64,000 nt of DNA from the NCBI GenBank assembly GCA_026214975.1, contig CM047805.1, positions 5,084,001-5,148,000 of the forward strand, written 5' to 3'. Shown here piece by piece: positions 18,456 through 64,000 of this stretch. Under the pieces are notes generated by a model. It did not search any database. It had not been told where the DNA came from and saw only the letters and a list, made by a program, of their open reading frames with translations. Every line of letters begins with the position of its first letter. Within the stretch, counting starts at the first letter, position 1. Made by a program: the position numbers and the translations under genes. Source of the stretch: Gentiana macrophylla. Its lineage: Eukaryota > Streptophyta > Magnoliopsida > Gentianales > Gentianaceae.

Positions 18456-19330
18456 TGTTGTAGTCTATGTAGTAAACTGGTTACATTGACTAGAAAAACG
18501 AATAAGCAAAATTACAACAGAAACAACTTACAGTTTGTTTTGAAACAGATTAAAAGTAGAAGGAAACCGAGCCGTGTGTTTAACACACTTTCCTTAAGAC
18601 TAATTCTTCCCCTCACCGTCGAGTGCTTGAGCTTCAATGGAACGTTAGTCTCCCAGGATAAAACGGTTAACAAGGACATGTTGCTCCATACCTTCCTTGT
18701 TTCAGAACTATTTGCTTGAACTCTCTATTTTCCATAAGAAAGGTAGAAGGAAGAGGAATTTCGGTGTATCAGCTTCTGGTTCTTAAGCTCCTCTTATTCT
18801 TGTTGTATTTGTGGCTGTATATATAGACAGGCTCTAGTAGAGGAGAGTGGATAAACTAATGGAAGATGGGACAATTCACCAATTGAATGTCATCATCAAT
18901 ATGGAGTAAGTGTTAGAACTGGAAGGTCTTCAGCATAATCACGTTGGAATGGAACAGTCTCACAGCAGCATTCAGTATTGGAAAATAATAAAGATTTTAT
19001 TTGCAATAACTAACTCAGACTGTGAACATTCAAATCGAGCAGCAGTCGTGTACGCAGGATACGCGGGCATGCACAAGCGCCCAAGGGTAAACCAAGGTGA
19101 AATCCGTATTGGATTTGCACCCCCCTACGCGCGCGAGATTGTGTATAATGTTGGTTTCTCATTCCAACTACACTAAATTAACATCATAATATTGACTCTT
19201 TTCCCTTCTTCCAACCAATGTGGGAGAAATAGCTTCTTCCAATTTTTCCTTTCCATAACACTTTCCATTCACACACTTAAGCCCAATAGGCCCAATATGA
19301 CATATCATTTTAACCATCAATTTTCCAACA
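18456..19330 (-). repeat. copia-B 3' LTR
   Basis: 875 bp. The minus strand starts TGTTGGAAAATTGATGG and ends CTACAACA. A sense TATA box (CTATATATAC) lies near 18812-18825, and a CTTAAGACTAATTC site (plus strand) is near 18592-18605. It is close to the 25504-26370 copy. Because it ends 45 bp from the dioxygenase ATG in the same orientation, it could drive read-out transcription. Confidence 0.9.
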
Positions 19331-19346
19331 ATCCCCCACATGAATG
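19331..19346 (-). promoter_or_regulatory. copia-B polypurine tract
   Basis: The minus strand reads CATTCATGTGGGGGAT immediately before the LTR start TGTTGG. It is identical to that of copia-C at 55385-55400. Confidence 0.85.
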
Positions 19347-25486: not shown

Positions 25487-25503
25487 CGAATTAGTCTTAA
25501 GAT
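25487..25503 (-). promoter_or_regulatory. copia-B post-LTR priming site candidate, self-complementary
   Basis: Directly inside the 5' LTR the sense strand reads ATCTTAAGACTAATTCG. It is not the usual TGGTATCAGAGC complement of tRNA-iMet. Its 15 nt CTTAAGACTAATTCG are the perfect reverse complement of the sense-LTR sequence at 25657-25671. The same arrangement occurs in copia-C with a matching change. Confidence 0.7.
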
Positions 25504-26370
25504 TGTTGCAGTCTATGTAGTAAACTGGTTACATTGACTAGAAAAACGAATAAGCAAAATTACAACAAATCGAAATTACAACAGAAACAACTTATAGTTT
25601 GTTTTGAAACAGATGAAAAGTAGAAGGAAACCGAGCCGTGTGTTTAACACACTTTCCTTAAGACTAATTCGTCCCCTCACCGTCGAGTGCTTGAGCTTCA
25701 ATGGAACGTTAGTCTCCCAGGATAGAATGGTTAAGAAGGACAGGTTGCACCATACCTTCCTTGTTTAAGAACTATTTGCTTGAACTCTCTATTTTCCATA
25801 AGAAAGGTAGAAGGAAGAGGAATTTCGGTGTATCAGCTTATGGTTCTTAAGCTCCTCTTATTCTTGTTGTATTTGTGGCTGTATATATAGGCAGACTCTT
25901 GTAGAGGAGAGTGGATAAACTGATGGAAGATGGAACAATTCACCAATTGAATGTCATCATCAATATGGAATAAGTGTTAAAACTGGAAGGTCTTCAGCAT
26001 AATCACGTTGGAATGGAACAGTCTCACAGCAGCATTCAGTATTGGAAAACAATAAAGATTTTATTTGCAATAACTGACTCGGACTGTAAACCTTCAAATT
26101 GAGCTGCATTCGTGTACGCAGGACACGCGGGCATGCACAAGCGCCCAAGGGTAAACCAAAGTGAAATACGTATTGGATTTGCACACCCCCTCCCCCCCTT
26201 GCGCGTGCGAAATCGTGTATAATGTTAGTTTCTCATTCCAGCCACACTAAAACAACATCATATAAATATTGACTTTTATCCCTTCTTCCAACCAATGTGG
26301 GAGAAATAGCTTCTTCTCATTTTTCCTTTCCATAACACTTTCCATTCACACTTAAGCCCAATAGGCCCAA
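25504..26370 (-). repeat. copia-B 5' LTR, truncated
   Basis: Matches 18456-19284 closely. The plus strand starts TGTTGCAGTC and is lost after CCCAATAGGCCCAA at 26370, so about 46 bp of the sense start (TGTTGGAAAATTG...) is missing. A sense TATA-like CCTATATATACAGC lies near 25883-25893. Confidence 0.88.
25657..25671 (-). promoter_or_regulatory. LTR-internal partner of the copia-B priming site
   Basis: The sense strand reads CGAATTAGTCTTAAG, perfectly complementary to 25487-25501. It lies about 220 nt downstream of the TATA box, so it would be in the transcribed part of the LTR. Confidence 0.7.
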
Positions 26371-27695
26371 GTCAGCAGTCCACTAGGTGATCCATTACCA
26401 ATAAGCACTTGAGATATGGAAAACAAATTCCAACTCATTTAGTGGCTAATAATTCTTTTTTTTTTATTCTCTCCAGCTAGTCTGACACTCATCAAAATAA
26501 ACTCTGTTTTAGGCCTAACAATATTTGCATTTATTAGGAACAAATCAAATGATCATGCAACCCCACAAAACATTTCATTATTAAAATCAACACATTAACT
26601 CACTCTATTAATATCCATGACACTTGATACAACTTTATTAAATGTGCCAAAGCCCAGTTATGAAATTTTGTCAATTGACTAATTGTTCCCACATCGGTAG
26701 ATTGGAATAGAGTAGCAGACTTTGGCTTATTTAAATGGGGCAAATGTCCAAAAAGACACATATTAGACTTAATTAGGTAAATATGACATTAATGAATCGT
26801 ATTTGGTTATAAGGACACAAAAATAGTACATAGACCAAACTACCCCCAATTTTATTTTAGGTAATAAAGAGAAGGGCAAAACGGGAACAACATAAAAAAT
26901 GACCGGAATATTATTTTGATTCTACCGGAATTGCTAAGTTAAGGTTTTTGGAAAACCCCAAGGGGGTAAACAATATTTTTTTAAACCACGAGGGGTCAAA
27001 GACTTCAATTGGCAAACCATAGGGAGGTAAAAGGTGTTTTCCCCATTAAATAATGGTAAGGTAATTTAAAATCTTAATTTAAACTACTCCCTCGGTCGCT
27101 CATCTTAGCATTTGTACTTTGATTAATTAAGTTGTTTAATGGAAGAATTTAAGTGTCAATTTTCCAAGTCTCTTACTTGTTTATTTTTCTTCTTTCACAC
27201 GCTGTTATAATTTTGATATGAAATGAGGCTTACGTGAGATTTAAGGTTTACTCTAAATATTACTTGTCGAGCATCCAATGTCTGGATAAGAATTCGATAT
27301 CCAAGACAAAGACATTACAAATAATCATTCGTATGGAAAATCATTCAAGATATGCTCATGATCTTGAGAAGTTAAAGAATTGTAAATCTTTGATTAGAAA
27401 AAGCCTTGAGGCCTTAAACAATGTCTACCCTCCAATTCTCAAAAATACCCGTGAATTTTAATTGTATTTTTTATTTTTAATTACAGTGTGAGAGGTGTTT
27501 TTTTTAATATAATTAGTTTACAAACTCTCAGAAGCGCGTACGGGATTTAAAGAAAGACGCACAAAGTTTATAATTAGTTTACAAACTTTCCAAGCTTGTG
27601 GCTTAAAAATTTTTTAAAGAAAGACACACAAAGTCGCATGCGTATGGGATTTAATGTATCCTAAAATATACGACTAATAAATTGAGTTTCACATC
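26371..27695. other. Unassigned non-coding DNA
   Basis: No convincing gene. It includes a U-snRNA-type upstream element at 26685-26697 and an unusual stretch (26960-27060) with repeated G-rich phrases (CCCCAAGGGGGTAAA, ACGAGGGGTCAAAG, CATAGGGAGGTAAAAG), perhaps a transposon end. The 75-codon plus frame at 27234-27461 has no recognised similarity. Confidence 0.5.
26685..26736 (+). promoter_or_regulatory. USE + TATA arrangement (snRNA-type promoter-like)
   Basis: GTTCCCACATCGG at 26685-26697 matches the plant upstream sequence element (RTCCCACATCG) and TTATTTAAAT at 26727-26736 is TATA-like, about 30 nt apart, which is near the Pol II snRNA spacing. Downstream sequence does not resemble a known U-snRNA. 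Confidence 0.35.
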
Positions 27696-53646: not shown

Positions 53647-54289
53647 TGATCGCATGTAAGTCGCTTAATACTAGCAAGAGGACTAGGTCAATCGTAATTT
53701 AGAAAGGACGAGTCAAGGTTGATCCTACAGAGACTATTATTTAATTACTTTAAACATCACCACAATTTATAGGTCAACCGGATAGGGATGGTCATTGACT
53801 AGCATAAATAAACAGTAAATAAAAGAGATACAATAAACTCATGGTCAATCATTTATTCAAAAGACATTAACCAAACTATTCATAACTAATCTCCCCTTAA
53901 TCCGTGTTTGAATCGTGTGTGTAATTTAGCTACGGGTGCAACTCCTAACCCTATCCACTCCGACCATGGTAGTAGACAATCCATACGCAAGCTACCCTCC
54001 TTAATTGGTCCGTAATAGCCCATATGCATAAAGAACTAGAATTGCCGGTAATGAGCGCAACCTATACCGCTAACCCGCCTAGGCAGCAATCGACACTGAT
54101 TAGCACGTTCCTAGGGTCCATCAAGACAATGACCTAATTAACACTTCACTATCAGTACTTCATTCTAATTTACGAAGACATGCAAATGGTTGATCGGGCT
54201 ACTAACATGTAAATTAGATTTGTCGATCAACGTAGCTGACACCGAACCACAAAATTAGGGTTTACTAGGTATTCATATCTAGTGATATA
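53647..54289 (-). mobile_element. gypsy-D LTR, left part (Athila-like)
   Basis: The plus strand begins TGATCGCATGTAAGTCGCTTAATACTAGCAAGAGG and then matches the layout of the gypsy-B LTR (CTAGCAAGAG-ACTAGGT ... GATCC-ACAGAGACT). It is interrupted after 54289 by copia-C and resumes at 63422. The family differs from gypsy-A and gypsy-B. Confidence 0.75.
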
Positions 54290-55384
54290 TGTTAGAAATA
54301 TATTATAGAAGTGTATTTGTTTGCTAAATTTCTGAGATGACCAAGATGCAATTTGTAGAAACATGAATATAATGATGAACACATAGCACGAAACTTTATT
54401 CATATTTTCATAGCACTACAACACATAGAAAAAAGAATGCAGAAAGCAAAATGTAAATACGAAAAATTATTGTGACTGAGGCGAGTTTAGAACTCTGTCC
54501 TTAAGACATAATTGCCCCGCCTATGGTGCACACGGTTTATAGCAATACATCTCCCAAGATACAACAGTCTCCCTTTCCGGGTTCTTGCACTAGAATGAGG
54601 AAAGCAACGAACTGATTGAGCCTTTGATTATCTCTGACAATGCAGTGTTTTAGTGTTTGTTTTTGCAGAGTAACGGTATGATTAATGCTATGTTTTCTGT
54701 CTCTTTTTTTTTTCATTCAGGGATGTGTTTTCTTTTATAGGCAAAAATAATGTAGAGTAGTGTCCTTTGAGAAATGGAAGTTAGGGAGATTTTCGAATAG
54801 TCAGGCATCTTGGCCGAACTGATGCCATTTTCGTTGCTGCTCTTGGCCGAACTGATGCCATTTCCAAAATGATGCATTGTTCCACTGTTGCATTTTCCAG
54901 AATTAAATGTTGAGCTGGTCCAAAAATTAATATTGGGCCAAGCCAAGCCCAAAGCCCGAGCCCGAACCGAGCCGAGCCGGCCGGACGGCGGCGGCGGCGG
55001 CGCGCACGTGTGAACCAACAAGCATCTAAGTCCTCCCTCCTTCACAAAATTCTCTTGCCCCTTGGGGCTTGACCTTCTATGAAACTCTCCCACTTATATA
55101 GTGAGCAACTTTAGTTTCATTGCCTATGTGGGATAAATGGAACACACTTCCATTATAACACCCACATAAATTACTCTACATTTAGGCATTGATTTCTCAT
55201 TCACCCGATATCGGAATCGAGTGATTCAAAAGCCTAACATCAACTACTATCTTAGTAGTTTCCAATAATAATTTTAGCTCCCGTAAATTCATTCCACATG
55301 TCATTCAAAATCGAGCCTTAAGTGGACTGTCCGCCACTTACACTTAGACCCGGTTTGAGCTAAATAATCATTAAAGTTCCAACA
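54290..55384 (-). repeat. copia-C 3' LTR
   Basis: 1095 bp. The sense strand starts TGTTGGAACTTTAATG and ends ATATATTTCTAACA. The sense TATA box CCTATAAAAG is near 54733-54743 and AATAAAG is near 54389. A CGG-repeat near 54984-55001 generates an artefactual proline-rich frame. The self-complementarity site is at 54500-54513. Confidence 0.94.
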
Positions 55385-55400
55385 ATCCCCCACATGAATG
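55385..55400 (-). promoter_or_regulatory. copia-C polypurine tract
   Basis: The minus strand CATTCATGTGGGGGAT adjoins the LTR start TGTTGG, as in copia-B. Confidence 0.88.
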
Positions 55401-55949
55401 AAAATTAATGCATATGCTATGTAGACTCTGTAGAGATAACAAAACGGAGTTCTATTGCATCGGGCGAGGTGGTTTGCTGCCTTGAACCTTCCCTAGTAGA
55501 ATACCATCGGACATACTCGGCTAAGCAGTGAACTAGGTCTTGAACTGCTCAGGCTTTGGTGCATGCCTAGACAATGATACCCACACAATAGACCCCCTGG
55601 CCTTCTCGAAGTTCTCATGGTTGTGTCCATTTTGGCCCTGGAACACCTTGGTTTCAGAAAGTGTGTTAGAGAATTCAGCCCACAAACTCTCACAGAAGCG
55701 GCCCCACTTCCACTTACGTAGGTGACCTCCCATAAAGAGTACTCTGCAATACCCCACTTGGCTTAACCAAGATATAGGAATCATTAAAAGCTTTATGCTT
55801 AACCTAATCCTTCATCAGACAGCACTTTTGTTCTGACAGAATGGGTAAGTGCTAATTGTCCCTCGTAACTTAGTTGTCCCTTTTGAACCATGATCTTGGG
55901 ATATCCAGTCACTATGGTTGGGTTGCCATTATAAGGGAACATGCGTAAT
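55401..55949 (-). other. copia-C 3' untranslated region
   Basis: About 550 bp from RNase H to the PPT, comparable to 19347-19895 in copia-B. No domain. The small frames here are probably spurious. Confidence 0.6.
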
Positions 55950-56416
55950 TGATGTATGATAAAAATATAACCATATTATATGACTTTTTATAGCGTATTT
56001 ACGATAATATCATATAAATTCTATAAAAATATATCTAAAAACACATAAAAATCGAAATCGTTATAAATAGATATTATCGTTATAATTTTAGTAAAACTTA
56101 TAATTTTTATGATTAAAATTACTGTGGCTCGTGTTTTTGACTGTTTCAGGGTACGTGTGATGGAAAACTGAAGGATTAAAACCGAAACAGTAAGAAACGG
56201 AAGAAAGATATTTTTCAAGATCCGCCCGAACAGAAAAACCCGGCCCGAGCCGAATCTCTCTCGCCACCAAAGACAGGGGACTCATGGGAGAGAATCTCCA
56301 TCTGTAGCACGGCCCGCGCTGGTACTACACCGCCCGCGCTTGGCCTTGTGGGGTACACTCTATAAATACTCCTCATTTGCAGAGTGTTGGAGTTGTACCA
56401 ATATATATATATATCA

Positions 56417-56495
<79 letters not shown>

Positions 56496-57542
56496 CTTAA
56501 TCTAGTTTGTAGTTCTGTAAATACCGTAAACGACACTCTGTCGAAATAATAATGTAGTATAAGTATCGTTGTAATACTTAGAAGGTTTATCAAGGCTCGT
56601 TGTTGCTAAAGGAGTTGCTATTTTAGGAGAATACGGCTCTGACACTACAATTGTAATATGGTAACTTTTTAATGTATTTATGTTTGTTTGTTGTTATTAG
56701 TATCTATATATTAGTTATAATGATATTAGGCTAACTCTATATCTAGCCAAGATATGAAATTGAATTAGTTTATCTTTTTAGGGAAATAGATGATGACTAT
56801 GTTAAAATTAAATTAAAATCGATTATAATGAATCTTTTTCTATTTTGCAACGTATTGATAATATTCGGATTGACGTAATTAACCAAGATGAATCGCAACA
56901 TATAACCTAACGATGAACTGACCAGAGAAGTTAGGATATGAGATAAAGGATAGAAAAACCGGAGGGTAAAATGGCCGAGTGAAAAGCGTGACAACGGAAT
57001 CCTATTTCCTACCCGGGGGCAGATTTGTCTTGGGAAAGATTAATCTTATTAAATTTGTGCTCAAGATCGTAATAATGTTAAAATCAACGGTTTAATTGAA
57101 ACTAACACCGGAAAGTTAAATCGATCCGCCTGACAACCGGAGCCTTTTGAATAACATCGGCCGTCTGACAAACGGAATAACCTCTTTTATCCGGGGTAGA
57201 TTTGTACTCGGTACCTGTTCAGACTAACTGAGATTAGCATGGGGCAGTTGTGGAGATTGAACTGTTGACAATTTGACATATGACAATTTCATACGCTCGT
57301 GTGAGGAGGAGTTGTCTAGTTTAGGAGTACACCGGTTCATATATAATTGATTCACCTTAAAATAAGGAAAGATCAAGCACATCTATTTCTACTGAAAAGA
57401 GATACTGATTCAGTGACATATTCTTGGCTAGTTTCTAATAACATTAATAGTATTTATATCCTATATATTGTATTGGTACCTATATATATTTATATCTATA
57501 TATATATATATGTATTTCTATATATTTATATATATATATATT

Positions 57543-57579
<37 letters not shown>

Positions 57580-57803
57580 GTTTTAGTTTTATGCATTTAT
57601 TTACTGTTTTAAGGTTACTAGAAAGGAAAAAGAAAAATTGCGACTTAGATTGAGTTAATAACAACTTCTTGGTGTTTAGCCACACTCTGAATTACCACAC
57701 GTTTCCCTGAGGATTCGACACCTGACTCACCACACTAGCACTACAGTTTGACCCGATACACTGTTGGTTAAGGACTGGAATAGCACTAGGAAAGGCCACG
57801 TCA
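55950..57803 (+). mobile_element. Gypsy-type solo LTR inside copia-C
   Basis: About 1854 bp, TGATGTATGATAAAA...GGCCACGTCA, flanked by GTAAT (55945-55949) and ATAAT (57804-57808), a 4/5 match. A sense TATA box CTCTATAAATACTCC is near 56359. The motif TCCCTGAGGATTCGACACC near 57703 is the usual near-3' LTR phrase of Athila/Tat-like elements and matches gypsy-A near 2770. It disrupts the end of the copia-C RNase H frame. The boundary is inferred from the imperfect duplication. Confidence 0.7.
56396..56492. repeat. (TA)n microsatellite
   Basis: About 95 bp of almost pure TA just downstream of the solo LTR's TATA box. A second, imperfect TA tract lies at 57479-57577. Frames across either are artefacts. 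Confidence 0.92.
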
Positions 57804-59150: not shown

Positions 59151-59965
59151 TTTATCAATAGATCCATCAGATTTCATTTTCTTCTTGAAAATCCACTTAC
59201 ATCCAAGTGGTTTATCTCCGGGTGGAAGATCAACCAACTCCCAAGTATGATTTTGTAAGATGGATTCTATTTCACTATTGATAGCCTCTTTCCAGAATGG
59301 TGCTTCTGGAGTGGACATAGCCTCGGCGAATGTCCTTGGATCCTCATCTACCATATAGGTAAGGAAATCAGGACCAAAAGACGTTGAAGTCCTTGTCCTT
59401 TTACTTCTGCGAAGTTCCTCCGTTTCTTGATGATCATTTGATTCATCATTTGTTATTTCATCAGAAGTTCTCTTAGAACTTGAACCTTCTTTCTCCTTGT
59501 CTTTGCAAGGAAAGATCTCCTCAATAAATACAGCATTCCTTGACTCAATTATTGTATTTACATGAACGTCAAGTATGTCTGATTTATGAACCAGAAACCT
59601 ATAGGCACTACTATTATTTACGTAACCAATAAAGATGCAGTCAATTGTTTTTGGCTCAATTTTCACTTGCTTAGGTTTAGGTATTTCTACCTTTGCTAGG
59701 CACCCCCACACTTTAAGAATTTTGTAGTTAGGTTTGTGACCCTTCCACAATTCATAAGGTGTCTCATCCTTTTCTTGGATGGTATTCGGTTTAAAATGAA
59801 GTTCGCGAGAGGATCGCCTCCCCCACAAGTTCGGGGTAATCCCGAACTAATCAACATAGCATTCATCATTTCTTTAAGTGTTACGTTTCTTTCGTTCAAA
59901 GAACACCATTCGACTGTGGCGAATATGGCGCGGTTGTTTGATGAATTATTCCAGATTACGAACAA
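59148..59965 (-). pseudogene. copia-C integrase C-terminus and RT fingers
   Basis: The minus-strand frame 59828-59148 has DETPYELWKGHKPNYKILKVWGC, AKVEIPKPKQVKIEPKT, IFIGYVNNSSAYRFLV, then a Ser/Glu linker and RRSKRTRTSTSFG, AEAMSTPEAPFWKEAINSE and NHTWELVDLPPGDKPLGCKWIF (RT start). 59965-59760 holds the catalytic Glu region (SLNERNVTLKEMMNAMLISSGLP) in another frame. At least two frameshifts lie at 59770-59960. Confidence 0.88.
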
Positions 59966-61791
59966 AATTCATCAAAAGGTGCATCATATTCTCCACCTCG
60001 ATCACTACGAATTACTTTAATTCGTTTGCTAAGTTGATTCTCAACTTCATTTTTATAATGCTTAAAAGCATCCAAGGCCTCATCTTTAGTATGCAATAAA
60101 TACACGTAACAATATTTTGTGCTATCGTCAATAAAAGTTACAAAATACTTTTTACCGCCTCTGGTTTGTACAAATTTTAAATCATAAATATCCGTGTGAA
60201 TTAAATCCAAAGGTTCATTAAATCTTTCAACACTTGGAAATGGCAGTTTAGTCATTTTCGCTTCAATACATGTATGGCATTTTTTATTTGCATCAAATTG
60301 TAGTTTAGGCAATAAATCCAAGTTCATTAATTTTCGAACAGATTTAAAGTTTGCATGACCTAATCTACAATGCCATAAATTAGAACACTCAAGCAAGTAC
60401 ACGGAAGTAGTAGCATTCTTATTAGCATCAACAGAGTTTACAGACTTAGGCACTACGGCCTTAGGAATTACAATCATAATATTAAGTTTAAACATACCAT
60501 CTACACCAAAGCCCATCCCAACAAATTGTCCATTCTTACACAAAGTAAATTTTCCAGAATCAAAAATTAACTTAAAACCATTGTTTACAAGAAGAGAACC
60601 GGATACCAAATTCTTGCGAATATCCGGAACATGAAGCACGTTGTTCAACGTCAAGTGCTTTCCGGATGTCATCTTCAAAAGAATTTTTCCTTGGTCTTCC
60701 ACCTTTGAGGTTGCCGAATTTCCCATAAACAACTGTTCACCATCCACTTTTTGGTATTCAGAAAACATTGCTTTGACAGCACAAACATGGCGTGTAGCAC
60801 CAGTGTCTACAAACCATTCCCGTGGATTTCCAATAGTGTTGCATTCAGATATAATTGCTGACAGGTTCATTTCATTAACCGCATCTGTCACGATCTCAGC
60901 AGCATTAACCTGATGGTTGTGCTTTGGCTTTCGGCATTTAGCACTTCTATGTCCCTGCTTGCCACAATTGTAACAATTGCCTTTGAAGCGCTTGTCCTCT
61001 TTCTTTTCACTTTTTCCCTTGGAACTTGATGCACCACCGGCATTGAACTTTCGTTTCTTGCCTTTATTTGCACCCGAACTGGTCCCCACCATATGTGCTT
61101 TGGACTGTCCAATTTGCCCACCTCTGTCTAATTGCCTGTTATTTTCTTCAACACGCAACTTAACCACAAGTTTATTCATAGTTATCTCTTCATTTTTATG
61201 CTTCAGATAATTTTTAAAATCCTTCCACGACGGTGGAAGTTTACCTATTATCGCAGCAACTTGGAAAGGTTCATTTATAACCAATCCTTCTTCATGACAT
61301 TCAGAGATAATCACCTGTAACTCTTCCATCTGACTCACGACAGTTTTGAATTCCACCATTTTGTAATCCATAAATCTGTCAACAATATATTTCCTTTTGC
61401 CTGCATCCTCTGTCTTGTATTTCATCTCGAGTGCCTGCCATAAATCTTTAGCACTTTTGTACATAGAATAAACACTATACAATGTGTTATCAAGACAATT
61501 AAGGATATAGTTTTTGCAAAGAAAATCAGAATGCTTCCAAGCATCCAACGCAGTTACGGATGCTTTGTTGTTCTCCCCCTCTTGTATTTCAGGAGGATCC
61601 TCGGTTAGCCATTTTGCTAAACACAAAGTAGTCAGATAGAACAGCATTTTCTGGTGCCACCTTTTGAAATTCTGTCCGTTGAATTTCTCGGGCTTTTCGT
61701 GGTGTGAAGAACTTGTGCCTTGCACCGGTGCAACAATAGGATGCACCACATTCAGAGGTAAAGAGCTTGTGCCTTCAAACGTTCCTTCCAT
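59956..61791 (-). CDS. copia-C GAG-protease-integrase polyprotein, N-terminal 611 codons intact
   Basis: Starts at ATG 61789-61791. Capsid-type GAG spans about residues 30-215 (EKFNGQNFKRWHQKM, FMDYKMVEFKTVVSQMEELQV, LPPSWKDFKNYLKHK). A basic stretch precedes a CCHC zinc knuckle CYNCGKQGHRSAKC at 273-286. The protease has FVDTGATRHV near 327-336 (catalytic DTGA). GAG-pre-integrase has LWHCRLGHANF and CHTCIEAK near 472-511. The integrase core has HTDIYDL (first Asp, near 533-539) and IRSDRGGEY (second Asp, near 595-602). The frame ends at DEFCS after a frameshift, before the catalytic Glu. It could yield GAG and protease, but not a full Pol. Confidence 0.92.
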   Translation of the reverse strand: MEGTFEGTSSLPLNVVHPIVAPVQGTSSSHHEKPEKFNGQNFKRWHQKMLFYLTTLCLAKWLTEDPPEIQEGENNKASVTALDAWKHSDFLCKNYILNCLDNTLYSVYSMYKSAKDLWQALEMKYKTEDAGKRKYIVDRFMDYKMVEFKTVVSQMEELQVIISECHEEGLVINEPFQVAAIIGKLPPSWKDFKNYLKHKNEEITMNKLVVKLRVEENNRQLDRGGQIGQSKAHMVGTSSGANKGKKRKFNAGGASSSKGKSEKKEDKRFKGNCYNCGKQGHRSAKCRKPKHNHQVNAAEIVTDAVNEMNLSAIISECNTIGNPREWFVDTGATRHVCAVKAMFSEYQKVDGEQLFMGNSATSKVEDQGKILLKMTSGKHLTLNNVLHVPDIRKNLVSGSLLVNNGFKLIFDSGKFTLCKNGQFVGMGFGVDGMFKLNIMIVIPKAVVPKSVNSVDANKNATTSVYLLECSNLWHCRLGHANFKSVRKLMNLDLLPKLQFDANKKCHTCIEAKMTKLPFPSVERFNEPLDLIHTDIYDLKFVQTRGGKKYFVTFIDDSTKYCYVYLLHTKDEALDAFKHYKNEVENQLSKRIKVIRSDRGGEYDAPFDEFCS

Positions 61792-62206
61792 TTCTGTTCA
61801 ATGACAGAAGATCAACAATTAAAAGTTGCAAAACAAAGTTTGTAGTGCACACTTTTCAACAATGGAGTGTATGTCAATTTTAAAAATTCACAGACCAAAT
61901 ACTCAAGTAAAATGAATGGATTCACAAACTACAAGATGTAACGAATAACTTTGATTCTTTAAGTTTTCAGAAACGGTGTAGTAATTACAAAGTATTTTTC
62001 AATACAAAACAAGATATTTAGTCGTGACATTTCCGGTAATTTGTAAAATATTTTTCTGGTCATAACACGTTGCAGATTTTTGTTTCTACCATTTTAGCAG
62101 AAAGTTTACATGATATGTTTCTACAAAAGTTGCAGAGATTTACAACAAGTAGTAGATGAGAAACTACAACAATTTTGACAAACTAAATACACAGATTAAC
62201 GGATAG
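61792..62206 (-). other. copia-C leader
   Basis: About 415 bp untranslated leader between the post-LTR site and the GAG ATG. AT-rich, with no upstream frame of note. Confidence 0.6.
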
Positions 62207-62222
62207 AATTATGTCTTAAGAT
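62207..62222 (-). promoter_or_regulatory. copia-C post-LTR priming site candidate, self-complementary
   Basis: Directly after the 5' LTR the sense strand reads ATCTTAAGACATAATT. The 14 nt CTTAAGACATAATT (62207-62220) are the perfect reverse complement of AATTATGTCTTAAG in the LTR (62433-62446). No tRNA-iMet-type TGGTATCAGAGC occurs here. Confidence 0.7.
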
Positions 62223-63416
62223 TGTTAGAAATATATTATAGAAGTGTATTTGTTTGCTAAATTTCTGAGATGACCAAGATGCAATTTGTAGAAACATGAA
62301 TATAATGATGAACACATAGCACGAAACTTTATTCATATTTTCATAGCACTACAACACATAGAAAAAAGAATGCAGAAAGCAAAATGTAAATACGAAAAAT
62401 TATTGTGACTGAGGCGAGTTTAGAACTCTGTCCTTAAGACATAATTGCCCCGCCTATGGTGCACACGGTTTATAGCAATACATCTCCCAAGATACAACAG
62501 TCTAGCTTTCCGGGTTCTTAGAACTCTGTCCTTAAGACATAATTGCCCCGCCTATGGTGCACACAGTTTATAGCAATACATCTCCCAAGATACAACAGTC
62601 TACCTTTCCAGGTTCTTGCACTAGAATGAGGAAAGCAACGAACTAATTGAGCCTTTGGTTATCTCTGACAATGCAGTGTTTTAGTGTTTGTTTTTGCAGA
62701 GTAACGGTATGATTAATGTTGTGTTTTCTGTCTCTTTTTTTTCATTCAGGGATGTGTTTCCTTTTATAGGCAAAAATAATGTAGAGTAGTGTCCTTTGAG
62801 AAATGGAAGTTAGGGAGATCTTCGAATAGTCAGGCATCTTGGCCGAACTGATGCCATTTTCGTTGCTGCTCTTGGCCGAACTGATGCCATTTCCGAAATG
62901 ATGCATTGTTCCACTGTTGCATTTTTCAGAATTAAATGTTGAGCTGGTCCAAAAAATTAATATTGGGCCAAGCCAAGCCCAAAAGCCCGAGCCCGAGCCG
63001 AGCCGGCCGGACGGCGGCGGCGGCGGCGGCGGCGCGCGCGTGTGAACCAACAAGCATCTAAGTCCTCCCTCCTTCACAAAATTCTCTTGCTCCTTGGGGC
63101 TTGACCTTCTATGAAACTCTCCCACTTATATAGTGAGCAACTTTAGTTTCATTTCCTATGTGGGATAAATGGAACACACTTCCATTATAACACCCACATA
63201 AATTACTCTACCTTTAGGCATTGATTTCTCATTCACCCGATATCGGAATCGAGTGATTCAAAAGCCTAACATCAACTACTATCTTAGTAGTTTCCAATAA
63301 TAATTTTAGCCCCTGGAAATTCATTCCATAAGTCATTCAAAATTGAGCCTTAAGTGGACTGTCCGCCACTTACACTTAGACCCGGTTTGAGCTAAATAAT
63401 CATTAAAGTTCCAGCA
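62223..63416 (-). repeat. copia-C 5' LTR
   Basis: 1194 bp, about 99 bp longer than the 3' LTR because of an internal tandem duplication. Sense TATA box near 62759-62769. The sense start reads TGCTGGAACTTT instead of TGTTGGAAC. The CGG-repeat near 63011-63035 is longer than in the 3' LTR. Confidence 0.94.
62421..62616. repeat. Tandem duplication of 98 bp in the copia-C 5' LTR
   Basis: Units 62421-62518 and 62519-62616 both start TAGAACTCTGTCCTTAAG and differ by only a few bases. The 3' LTR has one unit. Each unit contains the CTTAAGACATAATT self-complementarity site (62433-62446 and 62530-62543). Confidence 0.92.
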
Positions 63417-64000
63417 ATATAGACCGTCGCAGATATGAAGAACGCAACCCATAATTCTGTGTTTCATATTAATGAATCGAATAATAAAGATTAAGGTTCG
63501 TTTAATTAATTCATAATTGATTAAATGCAAGCATAATCTAGATCTATCACAAGAACAATCATGAATCTAAGAAGGAAATAAAACATTGGAATAGATATTA
63601 CCCATAACGAAGAACATATCTACTCTTCAATTCTCTCTCCCTCCGGCGATTTGAATCGATCCATGATGATTGTAAACCAAGCACAATTCAATAATGAAAG
63701 ACTCATGACTTATTTGCAAGACGGAAAGAAGAAAATAAAAGAAGATTTTATTCCCAAAAGACTACATTGTATCTAATTGGTGAATAGATCTATGAATGAA
63801 TGAGAGAATGAATGGAATGGATGAAGAATACAATTTCGTAGCTCTGAATGGCCTTATATAGGTGTATAAACCGACTTAGGGGTACACCCAATGCTTGGAG
63901 GACAAGAAAACATGTTTCTGGAAGATTCTGGGGCTCGGTAAATCGAGGGTAACTCCCGGTAAACCAAGGGTGTTTTTGTCTTTTTCTTCCTGCCGACTTA
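63417..64000 (-). mobile_element. gypsy-D LTR, right part
   Basis: Starts with the ATATA duplication and continues the gypsy-D LTR from 54289. The sense TATA box CCTATATAAGG is near 63852-63862, placed as in gypsy-B. The repeated phrase CTCGGTAAATCGAGGG / CCCGGTAAACCAAGGG near 63933-63970 corresponds to the CGGTCGACCGA phrases of gypsy-B. It runs past the window edge. Confidence 0.72.

What the first reader, a model, noticed from the sequence alone, without database searches (positions are those of the whole stretch)
62207..62446. copia-C: the site after the 5' LTR is complementary to its own LTR, not to tRNA-iMet
Seen: 14 nt right after the 5' LTR (sense CTTAAGACATAATT, 2 nt from the LTR end) are the perfect reverse complement of AATTATGTCTTAAG within the LTR, about 195 nt past the predicted transcription start and before the polyadenylation signal, so inside R. 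Plant copia elements normally use tRNA-iMet (TGGTATCAGAGC), and that is absent. Known: fission-yeast Tf1 primes reverse transcription with its own RNA 5' end annealed to the PBS. Inference: this lineage may self-prime with an RNA cleaved inside R, or use a conserved leader stem. The motif is not at the RNA 5' end and there is a 2-nt offset, so the mechanism would differ from Tf1.
Basis: partly seen in the sequence, partly recalled or inferred. Interest (0 to 1): 0.85.

Follow-up and report, generated by a model that had tools for sequence, protein, structure and literature searches.

The report
Self-priming site of plant copia retrotransposons
Two different jumping genes in this plant DNA carry, just after their first end-repeat, a 14-15 letter site that is the exact complement of a piece of their own end-repeat, which fits copying that starts from their own RNA instead of a borrowed tRNA; this had already been predicted for one plant lineage.

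Summary
Element C (minus strand, 63416-54290) has AT + CTTAAGACATAATT right after its 5' LTR, the perfect complement of AATTATGTCTTAAG (M) in its own LTR; no tRNA-iMet site is there. M occurs twice in the 5' LTR, about 195 and 290 nt past the predicted RNA start. A second copia family in the window (element A, about 26403-18456) is built alike: AT + CTTAAGACTAATTCG, 15 nt complementary to its own LTR. Against C, A lacks one base in the site and the partner base in M: a compensated indel. Dinucleotide-shuffled LTRs reach 14 nt (C) in 4 of 24000 and 15 nt (A) in 0 of 24000. Best explanation: an RNA cleaved inside R primes reverse transcription. This is not new in kind: Neumann et al. 2019 predicted self-priming for the plant Ty1/copia lineage TAR by a rule met here. 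TAR membership by phylogeny was not tested. The own-genome search did not complete (23 calls), so host tRNAs and further members are unexamined. No structure beyond M:PBS exceeded chance, and the LTR-to-LTR match at M was reached by at least one of 300 shuffles.

The parts
62223..63416 (-). 5' LTR of element C (1194 bp; begins TGCTGG, ends TCTAACA)
   Evidence: TSD TATAT at 63417-63421 and 54285-54289
54290..55384 (-). 3' LTR of element C (1095 bp, one copy of motif M)
   Evidence: 870 of 902 and 295 of 297 aligned columns identical to the 5' LTR
62207..62222 (-). primer binding site of C: AT spacer + CTTAAGACATAATT
62531..62544 (-). motif M, distal copy in 5' LTR (about 195 nt past predicted RNA start); paired with the PBS in the 948-nt minimum-energy fold
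54500..54513 (-). motif M in 3' LTR of C
62420..62615 (-). 98-bp tandem duplication carrying M, in the 5' LTR only (copies differ at 3 of 98 positions, none in M)
62760..62770 (-). TATA box CCTATAAAAGG of C; RNA start assumed about 30 nt downstream
55385..55400 (-). polypurine tract region CATTCATGTGGGGGAT of C, identical in A
59956..61797 (-). gag to start of integrase core (613 aa open frame)
   Evidence: PF14223, PF22936, PF13976, PF00665
58394..59846 (-). SH3-like domain and reverse transcriptase, in two separate frames (59846-59148 and 59131-58394)
   Evidence: PF25597, PF07727 (on the first frame PF07727 is below its cut-off)
25504..26403 (-). 5' LTR of element A, second copia family (start approximate)
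18456..19330 (-). 3' LTR of element A
25487..25503 (-). primer binding site of A: AT spacer + CTTAAGACTAATTCG
25657..25671 (-). motif M of A: CGAATTAGTCTTAAG, 15 nt complementary to A's own PBS
19331..19346 (-). polypurine tract region of A, identical to C

Best explanation
The site after the 5' LTR is the primer binding site of a self-priming Ty1/copia element. Shown from sequence: in two families an LTR segment M (14-15 nt) is the perfect complement of the site, and the site starts 2 nt (AT) after the LTR. Inferred: the RNA folds so that M, about 190-200 nt from its predicted 5' end, pairs with the PBS; a nuclease (by analogy with Tf1, the element's own RNase H) cuts just 3' of M, after ...CTTAAG; reverse transcriptase extends that end back through U5 to the cut. 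Because M lies in the predicted R, the short cDNA can transfer to the 3' copy of R, and copying through it restores M. Inferred further: if the primer RNA is copied into the plus strand, as a tRNA primer's end is, the PBS is rewritten from M in each cycle, which would keep the two perfectly complementary while both change.
For: Perfect 14-nt and 15-nt complements at the same 2-nt offset in two families, meeting the rule of Neumann et al. (at least 10 bp, starting 0-5 bp after the LTR). Compensated indel: M is AATTATGTCTTAAG in C and CGAATTAGTCTTAAG in A, and each PBS follows its own M. BLAST with C's 62151-62950 as query found no hit in A's LTRs, yet the best local alignment of the two LTRs is M plus 15 nt downstream (score 31), and the best alignment of the two leaders is the PBS (score 27; no shuffles made for it). 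TATA to GTCTTAAG spacing is alike: 232 (C 3' LTR), 230 (C 5' LTR, distal copy), 225 (A, both LTRs). No TGG, the complement of the tRNA CCA end, occurs in the first 16 nt of either site. M:PBS pair probability 0.80-0.93 (C, 311 nt) and 0.87-1.00 (A, 251 nt). Self-priming is predicted for the TAR lineage in print (PMC6317226, passages).
Against: No cDNA or RNA end data. Only two families, related to each other, one element each. The score of the LTR-LTR match at M was reached or passed by at least one of 300 mononucleotide shuffles (maximum 33, mean 22.9, sd 2.3), so M's conservation alone is suggestive. Structure beyond M:PBS is no better than chance, and the whole-region energies are not unusual (z -1.66 for C, -0.27 for A), so no counterpart of Tf1's three-duplex structure was found. 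In the 948-nt fold the proximal M copy pairs elsewhere (62477-62491). RNA start and R limits are predictions, and A has no AATAAA downstream of M. Host tRNAs were not examined.
Confidence: 0.72

Rival explanations
1. The site binds a half tRNA cut in the anticodon arm, as described for Bianca, Osser and Bryco copia elements; the LTR match is secondary.
For: Half-tRNA primers exist in plant copia (PMC6317226, passages). The core CTTAAGA resembles the anticodon loop of eukaryotic tRNA-Leu(UAA), which could give about 8 pairs with ATCTTAAG (recalled, from no call).
Against: A and C share only ATCTTAAGAC before their sites differ by an indel, and each flank matches its own LTR. One tRNA matching both without a gap could do so over about 10 nt, less than the 14-15 nt given by the LTR. 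Host tRNAs could not be fetched.
Confidence: 0.08
2. M:PBS is a conserved leader stem for packaging, dimerisation or translation, and priming is done by something else.
For: The helix is present in the minimum-energy folds of both elements.
Against: It occupies the primer position, 2 nt after the LTR, and I see no other primer site. With M and PBS held fixed, shuffling the outside gave z -1.23 (C) and 0.45 (A), shuffling the inside 0.03 and 0.64, so no wider fold is evident.
Confidence: 0.12
3. Self-priming in trans: the primer comes from M of a second RNA, or from the 3' copy of R, rather than from the same RNA's 5' part. This is a variant of the best explanation, not exclusive of it.
For: M lies in the predicted R and so should be present at both ends of the RNA.
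Against: Nothing here distinguishes it from priming in cis; the cis fold forms in prediction.
Confidence: 0.2
4. Chance complementarity inherited by both families.
For: Shuffled LTRs reach 14 nt in 4 of 24000 for C, so it is rare but not impossible for one family.
Against: A reaches 15 nt (0 of 24000), at the same offset, with a compensated indel.
Confidence: 0.03

Closest known systems
TAR lineage of plant Ty1/copia (with Houba and Osr-1), Neumann et al. 2019, PMC6317226 (passages read)
   Same: Ty1/copia gene order and a PBS complementary to the own 5' LTR starting 0-5 bp after it; primer thought to be cleaved from the LTR part of the transcript
   Different: Lineage not confirmed by phylogeny here. 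In the passages I read the paper gives no motif position, covariation or spacing; these are added here for two families
Tf1/sushi group (Ty3/gypsy), self-priming of Tf1 of fission yeast
   Same: Primer is the element's own RNA, annealed to a PBS complementary to the LTR
   Different: Other superfamily. In Tf1 the first 11 nt of the RNA pair and are cut between 11 and 12 (PMC7175516, passage), with a three-duplex structure (PMC10085805, passages). Here M is predicted about 190-200 nt inside the RNA and no further structure was found
Half-tRNA primed copia (Bianca, Osser, Bryco; PMC6317226, passages)
   Same: Non-standard primer in plant copia
   Different: Here the site matches the own LTR over 14-15 nt; tRNA match untested
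Fungal Copia elements with a conserved hairpin sequence at the PBS place (PMC5445492, one passage)
   Same: Copia elements without a recognised tRNA site after the 5' LTR
   Different: Its authors found no LTR sequence complementary to that site; here there is one

Membership tests
Ty1/copia | Integrase upstream of reverse transcriptase; copia-type gag and RT | tested here: met
   (element C): PF14223, PF13976 and PF00665 on 61797-59956, PF25597 and PF07727 on 59846-58394
Ty1/copia | 5-bp target site duplication (93.4% of elements in the Neumann survey, both superfamilies) | tested here: met
   TATAT on both sides of C; not established for A
TAR lineage (REXdb) | INT/RT/RH phylogeny groups with TAR | not tested
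   REXdb sequences not at hand; the protein hits listed (120 of 1283, 120 of 7951) show no lineage names
TAR lineage (REXdb) | PBS complementary to own 5' LTR over at least 10 bp, starting 0-5 bp after it | tested here: met
   14 nt (C) and 15 nt (A), both at offset 2; rule
Tf1/sushi self-primed elements | Ty3/gypsy chromovirus | tested here: not met
   copia gene order
Tf1/sushi self-primed elements | Primer is the 5' end of the RNA | tested here: inconclusive
   M about 190-200 nt past a predicted start; no RNA data
Tf1/sushi self-primed elements | Further duplexes flanking primer:PBS | tested here: inconclusive
   fold energy no better than chance with M and PBS fixed (300 shuffles per mode); the duplexes themselves were not searched for one by one
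tRNA-primed copia | PBS begins with TGG (complement of CCA) | tested here: not met
   both sites begin ATCTTAAG; no iMet site there
Half-tRNA-primed copia (Bianca, Osser, Bryco) | PBS complementary to an anticodon-arm tRNA fragment | not tested
   no host tRNAs: none in the window, genome search did not complete

The most novel reading that the evidence does not exclude
In this copia lineage the primer is excised from inside R, about 200 nt from the RNA 5' end, and the PBS is re-copied from that primer in each cycle, so the LTR segment and the PBS evolve as one self-templating unit with no tRNA. The compensated indel between A and C would be a trace of this. In the listings of my paper searches, of which I opened ten papers for passages, I saw no experimental demonstration for any Ty1/copia element.
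Probability: 0.4. Interest if true: 0.6.

Novelty: new member of a known kind. Interest (0 to 1): 0.42.

Why it matters
Self-priming was worked out on Tf1, but for plant copia elements I found it only as a prediction. Two families with a compensated indel strengthen the prediction and name an exact cut site (after CTTAAG) that can be tested on an active relative such as rice Houba. If true, tRNA-independent priming exists in both LTR superfamilies. Such elements might also escape control by tRNA fragments, which target tRNA-type primer sites in mammals (PMC7472051, abstract in the listing); that is inference.

Tried and rejected
Rejected or not claimed: wider leader structure as in Tf1 (nothing beyond chance). 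A 13-nt complement between the leader and the LTR of C, at leader offset 95, has no counterpart of that length in A (next longest 11) and, by my rough estimate, is near chance for a scan of 383 positions. An origin of the 98-bp duplication as a reverse transcription error: only the 5' LTR has it, so a later change is simpler. Rfam: 0 matches in 61700-63500 up to E 1. A hairpin just 3' of M (GAGTT-CTA-AACTC in C, GTGTGT-TAA-ACACAC in A) was seen by eye. It appears in the fold of C's 3' LTR, in C's 56-nt piece and in A's long folds, but not in C's folds that include the PBS nor in A's 73-nt piece, so I make no claim on it.

Led nowhere: viral-contig scans for the RT (9 stretches matched a pattern, none a relative), the PBS pattern (12 contigs, about what I estimate by hand for chance; their surroundings were not examined), the PPT (0) and the gag-integrase alignment (14 stretches, none a relative). 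Genome contigs (39 stretches, 1 distinct locus) gave L013, a 36% relative in a Trichormus MAG, with two TGGTATCAGAGC sites (LTR ends not located). Searches for later work on TAR self-priming listed nothing on it by title beyond PMC6317226; of those listings PMC6934838, PMC9873768, PMC1940013, PMC5473765, PMC9682801, PMC9033089 and PMC5338827 were not opened. A search for papers printing CTTAAGAC with retrotransposon and LTR listed 5 papers; none was opened.

Full report
What is there. The region holds one Ty1/copia element on the minus strand, 63416 to 54290, which I call C. Its 5' LTR is 63416-62223 (1194 bp), its 3' LTR 55384-54290 (1095 bp), and TATAT stands on both sides. Pfam finds gag, integrase core, SH3-like domain and reverse transcriptase in that order, the copia order. 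The coding sequence is split over several frames, so this copy is probably dead. Protease and RNase H were not matched by a family; I take the frame 58234-57692 for RNase H by eye (no Pfam match).

The observation. After the 5' LTR the sense strand reads AT then CTTAAGACATAATT (62222-62207), the perfect complement of AATTATGTCTTAAG in the LTR. That motif, M, is present twice in the 5' LTR (62544-62531 and 62446-62433), because 98 bp are duplicated, and once in the 3' LTR (54513-54500). The duplicate copies differ at 3 of 98 positions, none in M. No iMet primer site lies there.

A second family. Element A (about 26403-18456, minus strand) is about 68% identical to C in DNA over two stretches of its pol region (661 and 1418 aligned columns). 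BLAST with C's 62151-62950 as query gave no hit in A's LTRs. A's primer site is AT then CTTAAGACTAATTCG, and its LTR holds CGAATTAGTCTTAAG, 15 nt perfectly complementary, at the same 2-nt offset. The helices share 13 pairs; C has one more pair inside, absent on both sides in A (a compensated indel), and A has two more at the end. A's 3' LTR keeps GAATTAGTCTTAAG, 14 of the 15.

Chance and conservation. For the longest complement anchored 0-5 nt after the LTR, shuffled LTRs with the same dinucleotides reach C's 14 nt in 4 of 24000 and A's 15 nt in 0 of 24000. Two gypsy LTR ends in the window give 6 and 7; the second of these appears to be followed by flank rather than by a primer site. The best local alignment between the LTRs of A and C is M with 15 nt downstream (score 31; 300 mononucleotide shuffles: mean 22.9, maximum 33, so at least one shuffle passed it). 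The best between the leaders is the primer site (27), and the sequence before the 3' LTR is identical over 22 nt (44); these two were not tested by shuffling. The distance from TATA to GTCTTAAG is 232 and 230 in C (3' LTR; distal copy of the 5' LTR) and 225 in both LTRs of A. With a start assumed 30 nt after TATA, M begins about 190-200 nt into the RNA.

Structure. M:PBS forms in the minimum-energy folds of both (pair probability 0.80-0.93 in C, 0.87-1.00 in A). In a 948-nt fold of C the distal M copy is the one paired, while the proximal copy pairs with 62477-62491. With M and PBS kept and the flanks shuffled, the observed energies are ordinary: C z -1.23 (outside) and 0.03 (inside), A 0.45 and 0.64. 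Whole-region shuffles give -1.66 and -0.27. So the single long helix is supported, and nothing more.

Mechanism. A tRNA 3' end needs TGG at the start of the site; both sites start ATCTTAAG. A primer ending in ...CTTAAG would sit right after the AT. In Sireviruses AT likewise stands between the LTR's CA and TGG (CA/ATTGG, PMC2829016, passages). I infer that M anneals to the site, the RNA is cut after M, and cDNA runs back to the cut. Since M is in the predicted R and, in C, about 107 nt before AATAAA, first-strand transfer to the 3' R can restore M. If the primer is copied into the plus strand, the site is rewritten from M each cycle. For Tf1 the title of a cited paper states that the self primer is not removed (reference list); that paper is not held and was not read.

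What is known. Neumann et al. 2019 (PMC6317226; passages read, not the whole text, no supplements) predict self-priming for 12% of their plant elements, name TAR as the Ty1/copia lineage that does so, define the primer as released by cleavage of the 5' LTR of the transcript, and cite an earlier proposal for Houba and Osr-1. The finding is thus a new member of a predicted kind. TAR membership rests here on the primer site alone. In Tf1 the first 11 nt of the RNA serve, cut between 11 and 12 (PMC7175516, passage), within a three-duplex structure (PMC10085805, passages); superfamily and predicted primer position differ here.

Limits. The genome search did not answer in any of 23 calls, so further members and host tRNAs are missing. 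The evidence is two families with one element each; RNA starts and R limits are predicted.

Noticed in passing
62420-62615: 98-bp tandem duplication in C's 5' LTR only, carrying M twice; copies differ at 3 of 98 sites, about as much as the two LTRs differ.
   Followed up: partly
about 55924-57714: About 1.8 kb of C, between the frame I take for RNase H and the 3' part, has no clear BLAST counterpart in A and holds long AT microsatellites; probably a later insertion.
   Followed up: partly
62106-62119 and 62289-62302: 13-nt complement between the leader and U5 of C (places read by eye), crossing the M:PBS helix; no counterpart of that length in A.
   Followed up: partly
2864-2890: After a gypsy LTR end the sequence TTTTTGGCGCCGTTGC looks like a tRNA-Asp type primer site (recalled), an ordinary tRNA-primed neighbour.
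   Followed up: no
L013: Contig filed under an uncultured Trichormus MAG holds a 36% identical copia reverse transcriptase and two iMet-type primer sites; perhaps host plant DNA in the bin.
   Followed up: partly
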